Shown piece by piece: positions 6,762 to 44,290 of a stretch of 64,000 nt of DNA (position 1 is the first letter of the stretch; each line of letters opens with the position of its first letter). The stretch is from Paenibacillus swuensis (lineage in GTDB: Bacteria; Bacillota; Bacilli; Paenibacillales; DY6). The notes under the pieces are model-generated. The model saw only the letters and a program-made list of their open reading frames with translations. It was not told the origin of the DNA and ran no database searches. Location of the stretch: contig NZ_CP011388.1 of the NCBI RefSeq assembly GCF_001644605.1, positions 768,501 to 832,500 of the forward strand, in the 5' to 3' direction. A program made the translations under genes and the position numbers.

Positions 6762-8000
6762 TTAGTCAAAATTTCGGATCGCCGGCACCCATAACGCGCA
6801 AGCCGCGATCAACAGACCGCCCAAAGCGAGTAACACCATGGTCGCCTGTCCGCCAATCCAATCCGCTAAACCGCCTACAGCCAAATACCCCAGCGGCAAC
6901 AGCGCAAAGGAACCGAGCAGATCAATACTCGCTACCCGTCCAAAGGCTTCTTCAGGCACGAGTTCTTGCAGGCTCGTTTCCCAAACCAGTCCGAACAGCA
7001 TCATCCCGAACCCTTCAACAGCCATGAGCGCTACCAAACCCGGTCCCCACGCCACGAACGGCAGGAACAGCAAAGCGACTCCGCTGATGATGACGCCTCC
7101 GTAAGCCAACCAACCGCGTTTGCGCCAAGACGTTCTGGATCCGAACAGCAATGCGGCGATCACCCCGCCCACACCTGCAAAAGTCACGCCTAATCCATAG
7201 AGGAAGGGAGTGAATCCATGATGGATTTTGAACAACCAGGGCACAAGAATCAGAACAATACCGCTGAAAAAAATGTTAAGCACAGAAAATACAGCAATCG
7301 TAATCCACAACCACGGATGACCCTTCAGGATGATAAATCCCGTCGCCAAATCACTCTTCCACCCTATCTTGGATTTGATTAGTCTTTTCGTCCCTAAATC
7401 GCGAATAAACCATAGGCAACAAAGAGAGATGAGGTATGTTATCGCGTCAATCCCGTAACCCACGCCTGCGGACACATAGGAAATTAACAATCCTCCGATG
7501 GCCGGCCCCAGAAGCCTGACCCCTTGATGACTGACCTGAGTGAGCGCATTGGCCGCGTTACGTATGTCAGGTGTAAACACCCTTGCGCGCATTGCGGAAT
7601 AGGCAGGTTGAAACAGTCCTTCCATGAAACCGTACACCGCCATGAAGCTATATAACAGGGGTAAAGTCATCCGGTCTTGAAGCAGCAGAAACATCATCCC
7701 CAACATCATCACACAACGAACGGCATCCGCGGCAACCATGACTCCGATCCGGTTCATTCGGTCCACCATCAGTCCGGCAACGGGAAGCATCAATACATAA
7801 GGAAGCATGTAAACGGCCATCACGGTGCCCATAACCACTTTGGAACCTGTTAAAGCGTATACGACCATAGGCAAAATAACCATGGAAATTGAGCTTCCGA
7901 GCACCGAAAATAATTGACCCAGCCAAAGATACCTGAACGGTCTGGATTGTCTGACGGGTTGGAACAGGTTGTTGAAATAATTCAATGTGTTGTGACTCAC
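6762..8000 (-). CDS. MFS transporter (MFS_3/EntS-like exporter type)
   Basis: 412 residues with about 12 hydrophobic segments. The N-terminus contains FRYLWLGQLFSVLGSSIS, followed by MVDRMNRIGVMVAADAVRC, the loop 2-3 signature of MFS exporters; HQGVRLLGPAIGG and EAFGRVASIDLLGSFALLPLGYLAVG are typical of the enterobactin-exporter/macrolide-efflux branch. Translation starts at GTG 8000, 11 nt after GAGGGG. It lies upstream of the iron-siderophore binding protein in the same orientation but has its own promoter, so a siderophore-export role is suggested by neighbourhood only. A drug exporter is the main alternative. Confidence 0.8.
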   Translation of the reverse strand: MSHNTLNYFNNLFQPVRQSRPFRYLWLGQLFSVLGSSISMVILPMVVYALTGSKVVMGTVMAVYMLPYVLMLPVAGLMVDRMNRIGVMVAADAVRCVMMLGMMFLLLQDRMTLPLLYSFMAVYGFMEGLFQPAYSAMRARVFTPDIRNAANALTQVSHQGVRLLGPAIGGLLISYVSAGVGYGIDAITYLISLCCLWFIRDLGTKRLIKSKIGWKSDLATGFIILKGHPWLWITIAVFSVLNIFFSGIVLILVPWLFKIHHGFTPFLYGLGVTFAGVGGVIAALLFGSRTSWRKRGWLAYGGVIISGVALLFLPFVAWGPGLVALMAVEGFGMMLFGLVWETSLQELVPEEAFGRVASIDLLGSFALLPLGYLAVGGLADWIGGQATMVLLALGGLLIAACALWVPAIRNFD

Positions 8001-8032
8001 AGGTATGTACGCCCCTCAATGTGTTTCCATTC

Positions 8033-8061
8033 ACTCTACCCGCGAATGTATTCACGGTCAA
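8033..8061 (-). promoter_or_regulatory. Probable SigA promoter of the MFS gene
   Basis: Minus strand TTGACC (8056-8061), 17-bp spacer, TAGAGT (8033-8038). The predicted start falls about 25 nt before the GTG start codon, leaving room for the GAGGGG ribosome site at 8012-8017. Confidence 0.5.
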
Positions 8062-8114
8062 TCCTAGAGTTTAATCCCGTCAAATTATGCTTCGCATGAT
8101 TCTTATAGGGTTAA

Positions 8115-8144
8115 TTGTTTATGGTATTAACTTTTTGGTAAAAT
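8115..8144 (+). promoter_or_regulatory. Candidate promoter of the glycosylation operon
   Basis: TTGTTT (8115-8120), 18-bp spacer, TAAAAT (8139-8144). It lies 116 bp before the first gene of the operon in an AT-rich divergent intergenic region. The match is moderate and other starts are possible. Confidence 0.35.
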
Positions 8145-8259
8145 GATACATTATGTAGCAGTCAAAAAATAAATTATACTGAAAGTGATCCAGATTTCTG
8201 TTTTATACGAACTTACACATAATCGAGAACGTACGGGTTTTATAAAATAAGGAGACCTT

Positions 8260-9576
8260 ATGAAAATTATTCTACTTTCAGGAGGAACAGGCAAAAGGCT
8301 TTGGCCCCTTTCGACTAAAGGTAGGTCCAAACAATATATGAAGCTGCTGACCGGTTCTGATGAAACCAGCCTCTCCATGGCTCAACAAACGATGCGACAG
8401 TTAGAGAAACTGGGGCTTGCCGAGGATGTCGTTGTCGCCACGACCAAGAACCAGCTAGGACTGTTGTATGAACAACTGGGTTCCGAAATCCGGACCGTCG
8501 TGGAGCCGGAGCGGCGGGATACCTACCCTGCCGTTCTGCTCGCCGCAGCTTATCTGCATTCTGTGCTTCACACCCCGGCGGAAGAAACGATCGTCGTTCT
8601 TCCCATTGATCATATGGCTGACGCAAACTTCTATAGAACCCTATATGAACTGGAAGCCGTCATACGTTCGGGAAAGGCTAATCTTTGTTTAATCGGCACG
8701 AAGCCAAGCGCCCCTTTGTCCAAATACGGTTACATGGTTCCCCTTTCCGCGGATGAGGACGAACGAACAGATAAGAATGACTCATGCTTTCCCATCCACA
8801 GCTTTGTGGAAAAGCCTGACGAAGACACAGCTGAACGTCTAATCGCCCAAGGCGCTCTGTGGAATTGCGGCATCTTCGCCTTCCGTCTGTCCTATATGAT
8901 CAATCGTATTCCGCAGCATGATCTCGAGCCGGACTATGAAACACTAAAACTTAAATACCATCTGCTTCCCTCCGCCAGCTTTGATGTTCAGGTAGTCGAG
9001 CATGAGACCCGGTTGGCCGCGATTCGTTTCATCGGACGATGGGGAGATATCGGAACCTGGGATGCCCTTGTTGAGACGTTGGATCGTCCGGTGCTGGGTA
9101 ACGGCCTGGTTACGCCGGACTGCGCGCAAACCCAGATCGTCAACGAGTTGTCGATTCCTGTACTCGTGAGCGGAATCTCCGATGCCGTTGTTGTAGCAGG
9201 CTCCCAGGGCATTCTGGTAACAGCCCGCAACGCCTCAGCCGCCCTTAAGCCCTGGATTGACGCGGTAACCCAAGCGTCCCCCGCCAAGGAGACGACAGAA
9301 ACCGTGTGGCCGGAACATGTTAGCCCTGCGCCTTATCAGACCAATACGATTCATCTGTTCAAGGGACAGCTCCACGGTTTCAGCTTCTCCGACTCATGGA
9401 TCACGATCGGAATCGTTGTATCCGGACAAGGCATCGCCCGTGAAGCGAAGGATATTCGTACCGTATGTACAGGGCAGACATTCTATCCAAGTCATTCATG
9501 TACATTTGAACCTGAAACAGACTGCATCATCCTTGAGGTTCTTATATTTAACGAAGATAGGGGGGAAGTTCGATGA
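8260..9576 (+). CDS. manC: Mannose-1-phosphate guanylyltransferase-like nucleotidyltransferase
   Basis: 438 residues. The N-terminal pyrophosphorylase signature LSGGTGKRLWPLSTKGRSKQ binds the nucleotide; VLPIDHMAD, FVEKPDEDTA and NCGIFAF are the further conserved blocks of GDP-mannose pyrophosphorylases. The C-terminal ~90 residues look like a cupin-type module rather than a full phosphomannose isomerase, so only the guanylyltransferase half is expected: Man-1-P + GTP to GDP-mannose + PPi. Start ATG follows AAGGAGACCTT. It is the first gene of a six-gene operon (4-bp overlap with the next) and would supply the activated sugar for the GtrB-like transferase. Specificity for mannose over another sugar is inferred from family resemblance. 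Confidence 0.85.
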   Translation: MKIILLSGGTGKRLWPLSTKGRSKQYMKLLTGSDETSLSMAQQTMRQLEKLGLAEDVVVATTKNQLGLLYEQLGSEIRTVVEPERRDTYPAVLLAAAYLHSVLHTPAEETIVVLPIDHMADANFYRTLYELEAVIRSGKANLCLIGTKPSAPLSKYGYMVPLSADEDERTDKNDSCFPIHSFVEKPDEDTAERLIAQGALWNCGIFAFRLSYMINRIPQHDLEPDYETLKLKYHLLPSASFDVQVVEHETRLAAIRFIGRWGDIGTWDALVETLDRPVLGNGLVTPDCAQTQIVNELSIPVLVSGISDAVVVAGSQGILVTARNASAALKPWIDAVTQASPAKETTETVWPEHVSPAPYQTNTIHLFKGQLHGFSFSDSWITIGIVVSGQGIAREAKDIRTVCTGQTFYPSHSCTFEPETDCIILEVLIFNEDRGEVR

Positions 9577-9800
9577 GATTTCCACGCGCATGGATCGGTT
9601 ACCGACGTGAGGAAGTTCACCAATACCTTCATTTCCTCCGCCTGGAACAAGAGATGATTCAGAATCACACCGCCAAGGAAAGCATTCTCTTTCAAGAAGA
9701 GATGAATACCAAAACAAACGAGGCCAAGCAGCTCCGCGCGGAACTCCGCGAAATTCTGGCTCTTGAAAGAACCTATATAGAAGGAACGAAATCGTCATGA
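9573..9800 (+). CDS. Small DivIVA-like coiled-coil protein
   Basis: 75 residues, start overlapping the preceding stop (ATGA) and stop overlapping the next start (ATGA), so translation is probably coupled on both sides. The N-terminus RFPRAWIGYRREEVHQYLHFL resembles the DivIVA/GpsB membrane-targeting motif (F..GY...EV..FL); the rest is a charged helical coiled coil ending at residue 75. The next protein in the operon begins with a similar FGGYRCSTVNRAI segment and coiled coil, so the two may interact. No enzymatic motif is present. The function (localising or scaffolding the synthase) is inference. Confidence 0.7.
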   Translation: MRFPRAWIGYRREEVHQYLHFLRLEQEMIQNHTAKESILFQEEMNTKTNEAKQLRAELREILALERTYIEGTKSS

Positions 9801-12169
9801 AGCGGGATCGGCTGAAATTCCAATTCGGGGGATACCGGTGTTCCACTGTCAACCGGGCCATCCATAGCTCCGAAGTGAAGCTCGAACAGTGCAAACAACA
9901 ACACACGGAACAACAAGAGTATCATCGCATTGAGTCGCAACGTCTTGATACGGAGATTGAAGAGCTCTATAAACGGATGTCGGACGCCCGGGATCGAATA
10001 GAACAGTTGAAGCTCGCGACTCTTGTTATGGAATCCTACGCGATGCATGAGGCTGACTCCGCCTCCAATGAAGTTGCAGCTACCGTCGCGGCTGACCTTT
10101 CCGCAACGCCCATAAGGATGGGAGACAGATTAGTCGCTTCCGGAATAGTTACCGCGGCCCAGTTGGACGATGCTATGACTTCCCAAAAATTAAACGGGGG
10201 ACGACTCGGGGACATTCTAATAGATATGGGCTTCATTACCCAAGAGCAGTTCCTTCGTGTCATTCCCGAGCAACCGCCGAAAGGCAAGATTGGCGATATG
10301 CTGCTGGATTCCCGGCTTGTCACCGAGGATGAATTGAATAAGGCGTTGGAATCTCAACGTAAGAGCGGCGGCTTGTTAGGCGATGTATTAACCTCGATGC
10401 AATTCGTTGAACCGGAGGAGCTTGTCCGGGCCATAGCCAATCAGAACAATATCGGACGGATCGGCTCGGATATGACTGTAAACACCCCCGTTAGATTACC
10501 CGAGCAATTGGCCCGAAGTTATGGAGTGATTGTCGTACATCAATACATCAACCGGTTTCTCGTAGCGGTTAGCAGTCCCCTGGACGAAGAACAGATCGCT
10601 GTTATCGTTGAAGAGTTGCAACTGCCCATAGAGCAAGTGCTCGCCACGCAAGACGAGCTGGAGCAATATTGGCGGGACATCTACGGGACGGAGATGCTGC
10701 ACGAAAGCACCTCTAAGCTGGCGGAGGAGCAACCCCATAATTCAGCGTTGGAGACGTTTACGAAATCACAACTGGCGGTCCTCGGGATCCTTGCTGTACT
10801 GATCATCATCGGGTTGTGCGTTGACTTCTGGAAAACAGCCTTATTCGTGAATCTGATCATTCAATTTTTCTACTTTGTCATGGCTGTGTTCAAATTCACG
10901 ATTATCCTCATCGGTTCACGCAGAGAGGCGCAGTATCGTTTTACAGCTGAAGAAATTGAGGCCATTGATGAACGGGAACTGCCCGTTTATACCATTTTGG
11001 TGCCCATGTACAGGGAAGCACAAGTTGTTCCGCATCTGCTTCGCAATCTGGAGAATCTGGATTACCCGAAAGCCAAGCTGGATGTTCGTCTGCTGATTGA
11101 AGAAGATGATGACGAAATGCGTTCCCTTCTGGAAGAAATGAAGCTGCCGCCCTATTACACCGTACTTGTGGTTCCGGACGGACTGCCCAAGACAAAGCCC
11201 AAGGCTTGTAATTACGGGTTAATTCGGGCACGCGGGGAGTATGTTGTTATCTATGACGCAGAGGATCAACCCGATCCGGATCAGTTGAAGAAGGTGTTCT
11301 TGACCTTCAAGAATTCTCCTGAAGAATTCGTCTGCATTCAAGCCAAGCTGAATTATTTCAACAGCGATCAAAATCTCCTTACACGCTGGTTCACACAGGA
11401 GTACAGCATGTGGTTTGAGCTGCTGCTTCCCGGCATTATGCAACTGGATGTTCCGATTCCGCTCGGAGGCACATCGAACCATTTCAAGATGAAAGTACTT
11501 CAGGATTTAGGCGCTTGGGATCCCTATAATGTCACGGAGGATGCGGATTTAGGCGTCCGGCTATATAAGCACGGATACAAGACGGCCATCGTGGATTCCC
11601 GAACCTGGGAAGAAGCGAACAGCCGTACAGGAAACTGGATTCGTCAACGGTCCCGCTGGATCAAAGGATACATGCAAACGTGGCTTGTGCATATGCGCAA
11701 TCCGTTCCAGCTCTATCGGGAAATCGGGCTGAAAGGGTTTGTCGGATTTCAGGTCATGATTTTGGCCACGCCGTTGTTACCCTTGCTGAATCCGATCTTT
11801 TGGCTGATGTTGGTGCTGTGGTTCGGTTGGGAGCTTGAGCTGATTAGTAAGTTTTTCCCAGGATTTATTTATTATTTAGCCAGTGTTGAGTTTTATATCG
11901 GAAATTTCCTGTTCGTATTCAGTAACATTGCCGGCGTTTATTGGGTCATTCGGGAACTTGAAACCCGCGGAGGACGGACGTTCTCGTATAAACTCGTACG
12001 TTATGCTCTGCTCACGCCAATCTATTGGGTGTTAATGAGTATCGCGGCGGTGAAGGCGGCTTGGCAGCTTGTAACAAATCCGTTCTACTGGGAAAAAACA
12101 ACCCACGGTCTAACCGAACAGCCTTTGCCGGAAGGCTCCGGAAGAGATGTAAATACGTTTCAAGCTTAA
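9797..12169 (+). CDS. Membrane GT2 glycosyltransferase with N-terminal coiled coil and tandem MshEN modules
   Basis: 790 residues. Residues 1-80: DivIVA-like FGGY motif and coiled coil. Residues 107-159 form one MshEN unit with exact 24+5+24 spacing (R107-MG...Q130, linker KLNGG, R136-LG...Q159); residues 164-216 form a second, less conserved unit (K164, L193 in place of the key Arg). MshEN domains bind c-di-GMP. Two membrane helices follow (about 325-373), then a GT2 catalytic domain: VPMYRE (402), DAED (488-490 region), TED (580-582), QRSRW (617-621), and four or so C-terminal helices. This is the E. coli NfrB-type architecture with the MshEN part at the other end. Likely a processive or single-sugar polysaccharide synthase activated by c-di-GMP; substrate unknown. 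Confidence 0.85.
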   Translation: MKRDRLKFQFGGYRCSTVNRAIHSSEVKLEQCKQQHTEQQEYHRIESQRLDTEIEELYKRMSDARDRIEQLKLATLVMESYAMHEADSASNEVAATVAADLSATPIRMGDRLVASGIVTAAQLDDAMTSQKLNGGRLGDILIDMGFITQEQFLRVIPEQPPKGKIGDMLLDSRLVTEDELNKALESQRKSGGLLGDVLTSMQFVEPEELVRAIANQNNIGRIGSDMTVNTPVRLPEQLARSYGVIVVHQYINRFLVAVSSPLDEEQIAVIVEELQLPIEQVLATQDELEQYWRDIYGTEMLHESTSKLAEEQPHNSALETFTKSQLAVLGILAVLIIIGLCVDFWKTALFVNLIIQFFYFVMAVFKFTIILIGSRREAQYRFTAEEIEAIDERELPVYTILVPMYREAQVVPHLLRNLENLDYPKAKLDVRLLIEEDDDEMRSLLEEMKLPPYYTVLVVPDGLPKTKPKACNYGLIRARGEYVVIYDAEDQPDPDQLKKVFLTFKNSPEEFVCIQAKLNYFNSDQNLLTRWFTQEYSMWFELLLPGIMQLDVPIPLGGTSNHFKMKVLQDLGAWDPYNVTEDADLGVRLYKHGYKTAIVDSRTWEEANSRTGNWIRQRSRWIKGYMQTWLVHMRNPFQLYREIGLKGFVGFQVMILATPLLPLLNPIFWLMLVLWFGWELELISKFFPGFIYYLASVEFYIGNFLFVFSNIAGVYWVIRELETRGGRTFSYKLVRYALLTPIYWVLMSIAAVKAAWQLVTNPFYWEKTTHGLTEQPLPEGSGRDVNTFQA

Positions 12170-12185
12170 CTGGAGGTGAGTGGAC

Positions 12186-13235
12186 ATGAAGGAGGAGTTT
12201 CTCCCGGAAATTTCTGTGGTTATCCCTGTATACAATGAGGGAGAACTTATTTCGGATTCATTGCTTGTCATTGCGGACATGCTGTCCACGGTAACTTCTC
12301 GCTACGAAATCATTGTAGTGGATGACGGCTCCCAAGACGACACATGGAATCGCTTAACGTTGTTATCCATGGCATTGCCTGCCCTCTCTCCTCTGCGTCT
12401 CAGCCGTAACTTTGGCAAGGAAGCCGCGCTTTGCGCAGGACTTGAATGTGCGCGGGGCGCAGCTGTCATCGTTATGGACGGTGACCTGCAGCATCCTCCC
12501 GAGCTCATCCCGCGAATGGTGGAGCTTTGGCGGAATGAAGGCTATGAGATAGTGGAATGTGTTAAAGAAAGCCGCGGACGTGAACGGTTGGATAAGAAGT
12601 TGGGCGCCTCCGCGTTCTATGGCGCGCTTAATCATCTCTCAGGTCACGATCTCAGGGACGCTTCAGATTATAAGCTGCTGGACAGGAAAGTGATGGATGC
12701 ATGGAGAAGATTGCCTGAACGTATTACCTTTTTCAGGGGAATGTCGGCATGGCTTGGCTTCAAGCGCATAACGTTATCGTTTCATGTCGCTCCGCGGAAA
12801 TCGGGCAGCAGTCAATGGAGTGTGTTTCACCTGGCGAAGCTCGCGGTGAACGCGATCGTTTCTTTCTCCACGATCCCGCTGCGCATGGTCAGCATCGTAG
12901 GCATCCTGTTTCTGATCGGTTCCGTTGTTCTGGGTGTGCAGACCCTGATTCAGAAGTTTCAAGGCGTTGCGTTGACGGGGTTCACAACCGTCATATTACT
13001 TCTGCTCATTATTGGTAGCTTTGTTATGATTTCCATTGGCATTATGGGAGAGTACATCGCGGCGATTTATCATGAGGTGAAGGGACGGCCGCGTTATCTG
13101 ATTTCGGAACGTATAGTGAGTTCTGAAGCTCAAGCGGCAGCTCTGGAACAGCATAATTTCATTTTGGACCAAAACATGAATCTCAGCACCCCCCGAAGAG
13201 AACCTCAGCATAGCAGGCATATGTCTCATGATTAA
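12186..13235 (+). CDS. GtrB/DPM1-like undecaprenyl-phosphate glycosyltransferase
   Basis: 349 residues from ATG 12186, which sits 6 nt after GGAGGTGA; a GTG at 12180 is too close to the ribosome site. GT2 fold with VVIPVYNEGE, VVDDGSQDDTW, LSRNFGKEAAL and the metal-binding DGD (98-100) followed by LQHPPELIP, all typical of bactoprenol-phosphate glucosyl/mannosyl transferases (GtrB, CsbB, DPM1). Two C-terminal transmembrane helices (about 215-255 and 265-295). It would transfer a sugar, probably mannose supplied by the ManC-like enzyme, onto undecaprenyl phosphate on the inner leaflet. The C-terminus overlaps the GtrA-like gene by 8 bp. Confidence 0.88.
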   Translation: MKEEFLPEISVVIPVYNEGELISDSLLVIADMLSTVTSRYEIIVVDDGSQDDTWNRLTLLSMALPALSPLRLSRNFGKEAALCAGLECARGAAVIVMDGDLQHPPELIPRMVELWRNEGYEIVECVKESRGRERLDKKLGASAFYGALNHLSGHDLRDASDYKLLDRKVMDAWRRLPERITFFRGMSAWLGFKRITLSFHVAPRKSGSSQWSVFHLAKLAVNAIVSFSTIPLRMVSIVGILFLIGSVVLGVQTLIQKFQGVALTGFTTVILLLLIIGSFVMISIGIMGEYIAAIYHEVKGRPRYLISERIVSSEAQAAALEQHNFILDQNMNLSTPRREPQHSRHMSHD

Positions 13236-13650
13236 GCGGCTTCTGCGGTCTTCCGTTGTCAAATATGCTGTTGTCGGCGTGCTGGGCACAACTCTGCACT
13301 TCGGTTTGTTGTTGGCGCTGGTGGAATGGGCCGGAATGCATCCCGTTGCAGGTTCGGTTACCGGCTTTATCGCCGTCCTCATTGTATCTTATCTGCTGAA
13401 CCGGCACTGGACTTTTGGTGAACTGAACAACGGTGAAGCCCGGCGAGGCGTATTTATTCGTTACGGAATCGTATCGGGTTTCGGATTGCTTCTAAATACG
13501 GTGATTATGACCGCCACGGTTTCATGGTTACACTTGCCTTACCTCATTGGACAAATTCTCGTCACTTTGATTATTCCGATACACAACTATTTGTTTAACC
13601 GCTATTGGACCTTTCAATATTCGGCCCCCTCTTCGGAGTCTCATTCTTAA
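13228..13650 (+). CDS. GtrA-family membrane protein (lipid-linked sugar flippase)
   Basis: 140 residues, four transmembrane helices, with the family hallmarks VKYAVVGVLGTTLHFG near the start, YLLNRHWTFG in the middle and HNYLFNRYWTF at the end. GtrA-like proteins are thought to flip undecaprenyl-phosphate-linked sugars across the membrane for transfer outside. It overlaps the GtrB-like gene by 8 bp and is followed by a large membrane glycosyltransferase-like protein, reproducing the three-part GtrA/GtrB/Gtr arrangement. Confidence 0.88.
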   Translation: MIKRLLRSSVVKYAVVGVLGTTLHFGLLLALVEWAGMHPVAGSVTGFIAVLIVSYLLNRHWTFGELNNGEARRGVFIRYGIVSGFGLLLNTVIMTATVSWLHLPYLIGQILVTLIIPIHNYLFNRYWTFQYSAPSSESHS

Positions 13651-15311: not shown

Positions 15312-15344
15312 GTGGTGGGAAAGAGCAGGAGTAATCTCGGTGAA

Positions 15345-16095
15345 CCGCCATTTGGCGCGATATCGCTACTAATCCGGGGTTGAGGCGCCTTGGCTGGCCG
15401 AATTGTAGCGTTATCGCTACAATTGCTGGCGAAAGTGCCTGGAGTTTCTGGGGCACCGCCATTTGGCGCGATATCGCTACTAATCCGGGGTTGAGGCGCC
15501 TTGGCTGGCCAAATTGTAGCGATTTCGCTACAAATGCTGGCGAAAGTGCCTGGAGTGTCTGGGGCAACCGCCATTTGGCGCGATATCGCTACTAATCCGG
15601 GGTTGAGGCGCCTTGGCTGGCCGAATTGTAGCGTTATCGCTACAATTGCTGGCGAAAGTGCCTGGAGTGTCTGGGGCACCGCCATTTGGCGCGATATCGC
15701 TACTAATCCGGATTTTAGGCGCCTTGGCTGGCCGAATTGTAGCGTTATCGCTACAGTTGCTGACGAAAGTGCCTGGAGTGTCTGGGGCAACCGCCATTTG
15801 GCGCGATATTGCTACTAATCCGGGGGTGAGCTACCTGTGGAGGCCGAATTGTAGCGTTATCGCTACAGTTGCTGGCGAAAGTGCCTGGAGTGTCTGGGGC
15901 AACCGCCATTTGGCGCGTTATCGCTACTAATCCGGGGGTGAGCTACCTGTGGAGGCCAAATTGTAGCGATTTCGCTACAAATGCTGGCGAAAGTGCCTGG
16001 AGTGTCTGGGGCAACCGCCATTTGGTGCGATAACGCTACTAATCCGGGTTGAGTAACCGTTGGCATGCGAATTGTAGCGTTATCGCTACTAGTGC
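15345..16095. repeat. Seven tandem copies of a 111-112 bp palindrome-bearing repeat
   Basis: Copies begin (at ccgccatttgg) at 15345, 15456, 15568, 15679, 15791, 15903 and 16015. Each unit carries a GCGATATCGC-type palindrome and a second one, GTAGCG-TTAT-CGCTAC or GTAGCG-ATTT-CGCTAC. Because 112 is not a multiple of 3 and no start or ribosome site fits, the open frames on both strands are not genes. The array fills the 796-bp gap between the glycosylation operon and the next gene; nothing else is visible there. Confidence 0.93.
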
Positions 16096-16107
16096 TAAGC
16101 CTGAGCT

Positions 16108-36493: not shown

Positions 36494-36523
36494 CGGAGTT
36501 CAACTAAACATTAATCAGACCCA

Positions 36524-36652
36524 TCTACTGCTGACGAGGTTAGCTGACGGACTCGGGTAAGATGGTACCCTACATTCAGGTCATGAATGATTCGCCCCAC
36601 GTAATGGTTCCCCCGCTCTTCATGATCCATCGGACCAGAGATTAAGCGTATG
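36524..36652 (-). ncRNA. c-di-AMP riboswitch (ydaO/yuaA class)
   Basis: On the minus strand the conserved blocks occur in the right order: GCTTAATC, GAGCGGGGGAACCA, GTGGGGCGAATC, GTAGGGTACCATCTTACCCGA, then GTCAGCTAACCTCGTCAGC. This is the ydaO/yuaA pattern that binds cyclic di-AMP. An own promoter lies upstream and an intrinsic terminator downstream. It controls the KamA-like gene. Open frames crossing it on both strands are spurious. Confidence 0.88.
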
Positions 36653-36655
36653 TTT

Positions 36656-36684
36656 ATATTAGAACGAATGGAATAGTATGTCAA
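36656..36684 (-). promoter_or_regulatory. SigA promoter of the riboswitch transcript
   Basis: Minus strand TTGACA (36679-36684), 17-bp spacer, TAATAT (36656-36661): a near-consensus promoter located just after the stop of the upstream AraC gene. Confidence 0.85.
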
Positions 36685-44078: not shown

Positions 44079-44097
44079 TCACTTAACTGAATATGAA

Positions 44098-44237
44098 CCT
44101 TCGGGGCAGGGTGTAATTCCCTACCGGCGGTGAGGATGCGTTCGTGCGTCTAAGCCCGCGACTCCCGGTGTAACAGCCGGGACTGATTTGGTGAAATTCC
44201 AAGGCCGACGGTGAAAGTCCGGATGGGAGAAGGTTAT
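44098..44237 (+). ncRNA. FMN riboswitch (RFN element)
   Basis: Characteristic blocks in order: CTTCGGGGCAGGGTG, AATTCCCTACCGGCGGT, AGCCCGCGACTC, a variable stem, GATTTGGTGAAATTCCAAGGCCGACGGT and GAAAGTCCGGATGGGAGAAGG. It senses flavin mononucleotide. A terminator and then an EamA-family transporter gene follow. Confidence 0.97.
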
Positions 44238-44290
44238 AACAGCTTGTTGTTTATTGAATTTATTCAATGAACTGCAAGTTTGTTTGTCAA

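What the first reader, a model, noticed from the sequence alone, without database searches (positions are those of the whole stretch)
9797..10450. Glycosyltransferase with two MshEN modules: likely c-di-GMP-gated
Residues 107-159 and 164-216 each follow the exact 24+5+24 layout of MshEN c-di-GMP receptors. Unit 1 keeps both Arg-x-Gly starts, Gly and Gln positions; unit 2 has K and L in place of Arg. The arrangement mirrors E. coli NfrB, where an MshEN module controls a GT2 synthase, but here the modules are N-terminal, duplicated, fused to a coiled coil and sit in a Gram-positive operon.
Basis: partly seen in the sequence, partly recalled or inferred. Interest (0 to 1): 0.8.

Follow-up and report, generated by a model that had tools for sequence, protein, structure and literature searches.

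The report
Sugar polymer maker gated by c-di-GMP

Summary
The 790-aa protein at 9797-12169 carries two 53-residue MshEN c-di-GMP motif pairs at residues 107-159 and 164-216. NCBI's curated model NF053729 hits both at full length (71 and 64 bits, cut-off 38), and they are the only two hits in the genome. Behind unit 2 lies a normal MshEN C-subdomain (Pfam PF05157), then a BcsA-like processive GT2 with all catalytic motifs.

The c-di-GMP-gating reading is well supported. The genome has 11 GGDEF and 7 EAL domains. Relatives occur in Paenibacillaceae, Clostridia and Actinomycetota with one to three units.

Two corrections. (1) The K and L replacing Arg in unit 2 do not mark it as the weaker unit. 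The same K/L pair occurs in Thermus PilF GSPII-B, which binds c-di-GMP at 6 nM, 83-fold tighter than MshEN. Contacts of unit 2 are kept in 22/25 Paenibacillaceae relatives, those of unit 1 in 4/25. (2) The GT is not an NfrB orthologue: 23% identity, 58 bits against a cut-off of 1170, opposite domain order.

The operon adds a nucleotidyltransferase, a polyprenyl-P-sugar synthase-like GT2, a GtrA flippase and a GT-C enzyme, which suggests a gated synthase plus polymer decoration. Binding, gating and polymer are untested.

The parts
9797..12169 (+). GT2 polysaccharide synthase with N-terminal tandem MshEN (790 aa, P0001)
   Evidence: ORF; Pfam GT2 at 398-677 and MshEN C part at 233-300; AF2 model pLDDT 85, pTM 0.79; Foldseek: cellulose synthase BcsA, hyaluronan synthases, PcManGT
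9839..10048 (+). residues 15-84, single long helix, predicted coiled coil; present in most Paenibacillaceae relatives, missing in Clostridia
   Evidence: AF2; alignments
10115..10273 (+). MshEN unit 1, residues 107-159 (motifs 107-130 and 136-159); all 12 contact positions conform here, but the second Gln is lost in most relatives
   Evidence: NF053729 71 bits; 5HTL alignment; conservation
10286..10444 (+). MshEN unit 2, residues 164-216 (motifs 164-187 and 193-216); K164/L193 as in PilF GSPII-B; predicted principal c-di-GMP site
   Evidence: NF053729 64 bits; K167/L196 precedent in PMC11731258; conservation 22/25
10454..10696 (+). MshEN C-subdomain, residues about 220-300, following unit 2
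   Evidence: Pfam PF05157 at 233-300, 32 bits against cut-off 23.1; AF2
10985..11716 (+). GT2 catalytic domain with DAED (487), TED (580) and QRSRW (617), in the invariant stretches of the family
   Evidence: invariant columns; motifs
12089..12106 (+). WEKTTH (765-770), directly after the last membrane helix; WEKTxHG-type motif in 77/77 aligned proteins; E. coli NfrB has WDKTTH at the corresponding place
8260..9576 (+). nucleotidyltransferase, probably mannose-1-phosphate guanylyltransferase (ManC-like)
   Evidence: Pfam PF00483; TIGR01479 146 bits, below its cut-off 373
9573..9800 (+). 75-aa ORF overlapping both neighbours by 4 bases; weakly DivIVA-like (GYRxxEVxxYL), profile-similar to the GT's own N-terminus
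   Evidence: Pfam DivIVA E 5e-4, below cut-off; hhalign E 3.5e-6; present upstream in 7 other loci
12180..13235 (+). GT2 of the polyprenyl-phosphate-sugar synthase type (PgfS/ArnC-like)
   Evidence: NCBIfam PgfS 238 bits (cut-off 500), ArnC 161 bits (cut-off 529); syntenic
13228..13650 (+). GtrA-type small membrane protein (putative polyprenyl-P-sugar flippase)
   Evidence: PF04138 94 bits
13605..15311 (+). GT-C-type membrane glycosyltransferase (start codon uncertain)
   Evidence: AF2 pLDDT 88; Foldseek: DPY19, STT3/OST, ArnT, AftA, Pmt; a relative lies next to the GT in most loci

Best explanation
The protein is a c-di-GMP-gated, membrane-embedded GT2 polysaccharide synthase. The membrane-proximal MshEN unit 2 (residues 164-216), which directly precedes the MshEN C-subdomain, is the principal and probably high-affinity c-di-GMP site. 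It binds with K164 and L193 stacking on the two guanines, Gly166/Gly195 backbone amides on their Hoogsteen edges, and Gln187/Gln216 on the ribose-phosphate. Unit 1 (107-159) is a second, probably weaker or accessory site that is intact in this protein but eroding in its relatives. Binding is inferred to reorient the C-subdomain and the long helix 285-311 leading into the first membrane helix, and so to switch on the GT2 active site. The polymer is inferred to be decorated outside the membrane by the operon's GT-C enzyme, using a polyprenyl-phosphate sugar made by the PgfS/ArnC-like GT2 and moved by GtrA, with a GDP-sugar from the ManC-like enzyme. Shown by computation: the domains, motif residues, conservation, neighbourhood, and presence of c-di-GMP enzymes. 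Inferred: binding, direction of the switch, polymer and sugar identities.
For: Both units exceed the curated c-di-GMP motif cut-off. Unit 1 aligns with the crystal MshEN-c-di-GMP complex 5HTL. Unit 2 bears the same K/L replacement as PilF GSPII-B, whose KD is 6 nM; changing K or L back to R weakens binding there (PMC11731258). All 12 contact positions of unit 2 conform in 22/25 Paenibacillaceae, 15/20 Clostridia and 5/7 Solirubrobacterales, against 4/25, 2/20 and 0/7 for unit 1. The synthase has conserved DAED, TED and QxxRW and a BcsA/HAS-like fold. c-di-GMP metabolism is present: 11 GGDEF, 7 EAL, 4 PilZ hits. In four Solirubrobacterales MAGs a GGDEF gene lies divergently within about 1 kb of the GT gene, in genomes with only 3-5 GGDEF domains. 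In the Nocardioides-like branch the contacts are lost (0/24) and 10 of 20 genomes have no GGDEF, against 0 of 31 for the other genomes searched (Fisher 1.4e-5). E. coli NfrB, with even less canonical motifs (P489, R512), binds c-di-GMP and is proposed to be activated by it.
Against: No binding or activity data exist for this protein. Unit 2 lacks the turn glycine of both motifs (R173, Q202; Q/R/K at the second position in all Paenibacillaceae relatives), though NfrB also lacks it in motif 1. The C-subdomain Asp that contacts guanine in MshEN and PilF-B appears to be Ser here (S260) and varies in relatives. PilF GSPII-A shows that an MshEN fold can fail to bind, through motif changes together with helix capping and subdomain packing (PMC12002112). 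The Nocardioides correlation is one clade, so effectively one evolutionary event. The GGDEF adjacency in Solirubrobacterales may also be a single event. Decoration and sugar identity rest on family resemblance below curated cut-offs.
Confidence: 0.66

Rival explanations
1. One reading: unit 1, with both Arg, is the functional sensor and unit 2 is a degenerate spacer.
For: In this protein unit 1 matches the original RLG consensus best and scores slightly higher (71 against 64 bits).
Against: K/L at these positions is found in the tightest-binding MshEN domain described in the papers read. In relatives unit 1 loses the second Gln (Q in 5/25) while unit 2 keeps both Gln in 25/25. Clostridia likewise keep the last unit intact.
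Confidence: 0.12
2. Both units bind, giving two sites of different affinity and a graded or cooperative response.
For: All 24 contact positions conform in this protein. PilF binds two c-di-GMP through GSPII-B and GSPII-C with different affinities. Relatives carry one to three units.
Against: The second half of unit 1 is not maintained in most Paenibacillaceae, so a general two-site design is unlikely even if this protein has it. PilF showed no marked cooperativity.
Confidence: 0.35
3. The MshEN array no longer binds c-di-GMP and only serves as a structural or oligomerisation platform.
For: XpsE and PilF GSPII-A are MshEN folds that do not bind (PMC5013675, PMC12002112). The Nocardioides branch of this family has evidently lost the contacts.
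Against: Strict conservation of the ligand-contact Gly and Gln residues in unit 2 of Paenibacillaceae and Clostridia, in genomes rich in GGDEF domains.
Confidence: 0.13
4. The array responds to a different dinucleotide such as cGAMP.
For: MshEN of V. cholerae can also bind cGAMP (PMC5013675, section heading). The window has a c-di-AMP riboswitch elsewhere, so another cyclic dinucleotide is probably used by this cell.
Against: The contacts are those for two guanines, and the genome encodes c-di-GMP synthesis and breakdown.
Confidence: 0.05

Closest known systems
E. coli NfrB (c-di-GMP-activated GT2, NGR polysaccharide, phage N4 receptor pathway)
   Same: GT2 synthase with DAED/TED/QxxRW and W(E/D)KTTH after the last membrane helix, plus an MshEN domain with C-subdomain; GT activity proposed to be switched on by c-di-GMP
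   Different: MshEN is C-terminal and has one full unit in NfrB, but is N-terminal and tandem here; GT identity 23%; no NfrA-like pore expected in a Gram-positive; different operon; scores 58 against an equivalog cut-off of 1170
Thermus thermophilus PilF (three tandem MshEN/GSPII domains)
   Same: Tandem MshEN units of unequal quality; GSPII-B has the same K and L in place of the two Arg as unit 2
   Different: Attached to a pilus ATPase, not a glycosyltransferase; each domain has its own C-subdomain, whereas here one C-subdomain follows two units (PilF GSPII-C has three motifs before its C-subdomain)
V. cholerae MshE N-terminal domain (5HTL)
   Same: 53-residue 24+5+24 motif pair, aligned residue for residue with unit 1
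   Different: Single unit, on a pilus ATPase
Bacterial cellulose synthase BcsA
   Same: Same GT2/membrane fold (best Foldseek hit) and c-di-GMP control
   Different: BcsA senses c-di-GMP through a C-terminal PilZ domain; none is found here
Gtr-type decoration cassettes (GtrA flippase, GtrB/ArnC-like synthase, GT-C transferase)
   Same: GtrA, polyprenyl-P-sugar synthase-like GT2 and GT-C enzyme side by side
   Different: Here they share an operon with a putatively c-di-GMP-gated synthase instead of acting on O-antigen; substrates unknown

Membership tests
MshEN c-di-GMP receptor domain | Two 24-residue motifs spaced by 5 residues, above the curated model score | tested here: met
   NF053729, both units 1-53/53, 71 and 64 bits, cut-off 38
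MshEN c-di-GMP receptor domain | MshEN C-subdomain after the motif pair | tested here: met
   PF05157 at 233-300 above cut-off, behind unit 2 only; AF2
MshEN c-di-GMP receptor domain | Contact residues (extended consensus R/K/L at 1, hydrophobic 2, Gly 3, hydrophobic 17 and 21, Gln 24) | tested here: met
   All 24 positions in the window protein
MshEN c-di-GMP receptor domain | Binds c-di-GMP | not testable with these tools
   Needs ITC or DRaCALA
PilF GSPII-B high-affinity subtype | Lys and Leu replacing the two motif-initial Arg | tested here: met
   K164, L193. Relatives mostly have R plus L/M, so the full K/L pair is rare among Paenibacillaceae relatives
PilF GSPII-B high-affinity subtype | C-subdomain Asp contacting a guanine | tested here: inconclusive
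   The equivalent position appears to be S260; Asp in only 9/25 relatives, alignment-based
NfrB orthologue | NCBIfam equivalog NF008411 above cut-off | tested here: not met
   58 bits against 1170, and only partial coverage; E. coli NfrB scores 1333
NfrB orthologue | GT N-terminal, MshEN C-terminal | tested here: not met
   Reversed order
Processive GT2 synthase (BcsA/HAS-like) | DxD-type, TED and QxxRW motifs with a membrane channel fold | tested here: met
   Invariant columns, motifs, Foldseek to BcsA, HAS
BcsA cellulose synthase | C-terminal PilZ domain and CelA equivalog score | tested here: not met
   No PilZ; TIGR03030 62 bits against 699
DivIVA family (75-aa ORF) | PF05103 above cut-off | tested here: not met
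   20.4 bits against 28

The most novel reading that the evidence does not exclude
A widespread Gram-positive class of c-di-GMP-gated synthases in which an N-terminal array of one to three MshEN units works as a multi-level sensor: a conserved membrane-proximal high-affinity site plus variable outer units that set the threshold, with a coiled coil and a small DivIVA-like partner placing the enzyme in the cell, and with polymer decoration encoded in the same operon.
Probability: 0.2. Interest if true: 0.75.

Novelty: new variant of a known kind. Interest (0 to 1): 0.52.

Why it matters
c-di-GMP control of exopolysaccharide is well worked out in Gram-negatives and much less so in Gram-positives. 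This family gives a concrete candidate effector in Paenibacillus, Cohnella and Clostridium relatives. The natural series of one to three units, including a branch that lost the contact residues, is a ready experiment on how tandem sensors tune a response. It also offers an independent test of the rule, built mainly on PilF, that more hydrophobic residues in place of Arg mark high-affinity MshEN sites.

Tried and rejected
DGC co-occurrence within Bacillota: the background is 279/299, so GGDEF presence in 26/27 GT-positive genomes is uninformative. c-di-GMP riboswitch near the operon: none in the window. Promoter/terminator scan of 7900-9900: no more hits than shuffles. GT-C protein by sequence profile against the PDB: no hit, solved instead by AF2 and Foldseek. 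The idea that the GT is a true NfrB orthologue: rejected by equivalog score and domain order. The idea that it is cellulose synthase: no PilZ, CelA score far below cut-off. Genus-level survey: only the window's own genome is held in its genus. Literature searches found no description of this Gram-positive N-terminal tandem architecture, but the library is open-access only and supplements could not be read; Wang et al. 2016 mention glycosyltransferase fusions and list domain combinations in supplements, which may include it.

Full report
WHAT IS THERE. The ORF 9797-12169 (+) encodes 790 aa. Its genome is one 5.01-Mb contig in which the window is 768501-832500; nearest relatives are Paenibacillus and Cohnella proteins at roughly 60-74% identity. 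From the N-terminus: a predicted single helix 15-84 (coiled coil), a low-confidence stretch at 82-104, four MshEN-type 24-residue motifs at 107, 136, 164 and 193 with linkers 5, 4, 5, a C-subdomain at about 220-300, a long helix 285-311, two membrane helices, a GT2 domain, and further membrane helices followed by WEKTTH.

IS IT REAL. Yes. NCBI's curated c-di-GMP motif model NF053729 matches each unit end to end, 71 and 64 bits with cut-off 38, and nothing else in the genome. The crystal MshEN-c-di-GMP complex 5HTL aligns with residues 107-159, and PilF and MshE domains with 164 onward. Shuffling gives no sequence with two core motifs in 20,000 trials. Pfam alone finds only the C-subdomain part (233-300), so the standard Pfam view would miss the two motif pairs.

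WHICH UNIT MATTERS. The structure paper on Thermus PilF GSPII-B (PMC11731258) describes the same replacement, K167 and L196. It reports a KD of 6 nM (83-fold tighter than MshEN), a loss of affinity when either is turned to Arg, and an extended consensus (R/K/L)LG. Comparative evidence points the same way. Counting twelve contact positions per unit, unit 2 conforms in 22/25 Paenibacillaceae, 15/20 Clostridia and 5/7 Solirubrobacterales proteins; unit 1 in 4/25, 2/20 and 0/7. Unit 1 loses mainly the last Gln of its second motif, while its first motif and the RLG of the second stay fixed. In PilF-B a single Gln-to-Glu change costs 77- to 158-fold and the double abolishes binding, so unit 1 in most relatives is probably weak rather than dead. 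In the window protein all 24 positions conform. Caveats on unit 2: it lacks both turn glycines (R173, Q202) and the guanine-contacting Asp of the C-subdomain appears to be Ser260. NfrB also lacks a turn glycine in motif 1, and its motif 1 begins with Pro and ends with Arg, yet it binds c-di-GMP (PMC8669469).

UNIT NUMBER VARIES. Clostridial relatives carry up to three units (six motifs; three NF053729 stretches in L028), Paenibacillaceae mostly two, Actinomycetota one. The unit next to the C-subdomain is the constant one. Tandem and three-motif arrays are known in PilF, so duplication as such is not new.

NATURAL CONTROL. Nocardioides-like relatives keep the fold but have lost the contacts (0/24 conform), and 10 of 20 searched genomes have no GGDEF domain at all, against 0 of 31 for the other GT-positive genomes searched (Fisher 1.4e-5). 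This is one clade and cannot be counted as independent events. In four Solirubrobacterales MAGs a GGDEF gene is divergently adjacent to the GT. Within Bacillota the co-occurrence test says nothing, because 279/299 genomes have GGDEF. The window's genome has 11 GGDEF and 7 EAL matches and 4 PilZ.

THE ENZYME. DAED, TED and QRSRW lie in columns invariant or nearly so in 47 aligned proteins. The model's best structural matches are cellulose synthase with c-di-GMP, hyaluronan synthases, and the archaeal mannosyltransferase PcManGT. Similarity to NfrB is real but remote (23% over the GT), and the equivalog cut-off is missed by far. NfrB has WDKTTH at the point where the window protein has WEKTTH, just after the last membrane helix, where NfrB then continues into MshEN. 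A WEKTxHG-type motif is present in 77/77 aligned family members. The MshEN module has thus been attached at opposite ends of related synthases.

THE OPERON. Order: ManC-like nucleotidyltransferase (8260), 75-aa ORF (9573), synthase (9797), PgfS/ArnC-like GT2 (12180), GtrA (13228), GT-C (13605). Most neighbours overlap or nearly touch; much the same set recurs in Paenibacillaceae, and a relative of the GT-C protein accompanies the synthase in most loci. The GT-C protein had no PDB hit by sequence, but its model (pLDDT 88) matches DPY19, STT3, ArnT, AftA and Pmt, which use polyprenyl- or dolichyl-phosphate sugars or, for STT3, a lipid-linked oligosaccharide (from general knowledge). Inference: a gated backbone synthase with extracellular decoration.

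MECHANISM AND ITS LIMITS. Proposed: c-di-GMP binds unit 2, the C-subdomain reorients (as seen in PilF-B, PMC11731258), and the move is passed through helix 285-311 to the synthase. The direction (activation) is by analogy with NfrB and BcsA. Nothing here shows binding, gating, polymer or sugar.

NOVELTY. MshEN-glycosyltransferase fusions, NfrB, tandem MshEN, and rare Gram-positive NfrB homologues (Eggerthella) are all in the literature. The N-terminal tandem version with a GT-C decoration operon was not found in the papers searched. It is best filed as a new variant of a known kind.

Noticed in passing
window 9573-9800: A 75-aa ORF, probably translationally coupled to the synthase, has a DivIVA-like start (GYRxxEVxxYL; sub-threshold Pfam match) and is profile-similar to the synthase's own N-terminal coiled coil (hhalign E 3.5e-6), suggesting a paralogous partner. 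Coiled-coil composition can inflate such scores.
   Followed up: partly
window 15343-16096: A 112-bp tandem array of 6.8 copies, 91% matches, directly downstream of the operon; mechanical ORFs there look like repeat artefacts.
   Followed up: partly
window 36514-36658 (-): c-di-AMP (ydaO) riboswitch, 83 bits.
   Followed up: no
window 44093-44238 (+): FMN riboswitch, 115 bits.
   Followed up: no
L011:4410-14268: Paenibacillus macquariensis has two copies in a row of the nucleotidyltransferase, synthase and PgfS-like genes.
   Followed up: no
L070, L074, L075, L077 (about 3.1-4.9 kb, - strand): GGDEF gene divergently adjacent to the single-unit MshEN synthase in Solirubrobacterales MAGs, some with a DUF4118 region.
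   Followed up: partly
CP128455.1:35202-37064: A relative matching residues 163-784 at 39% lies on a 65-kb Geobacillus stearothermophilus plasmid.
   Followed up: no
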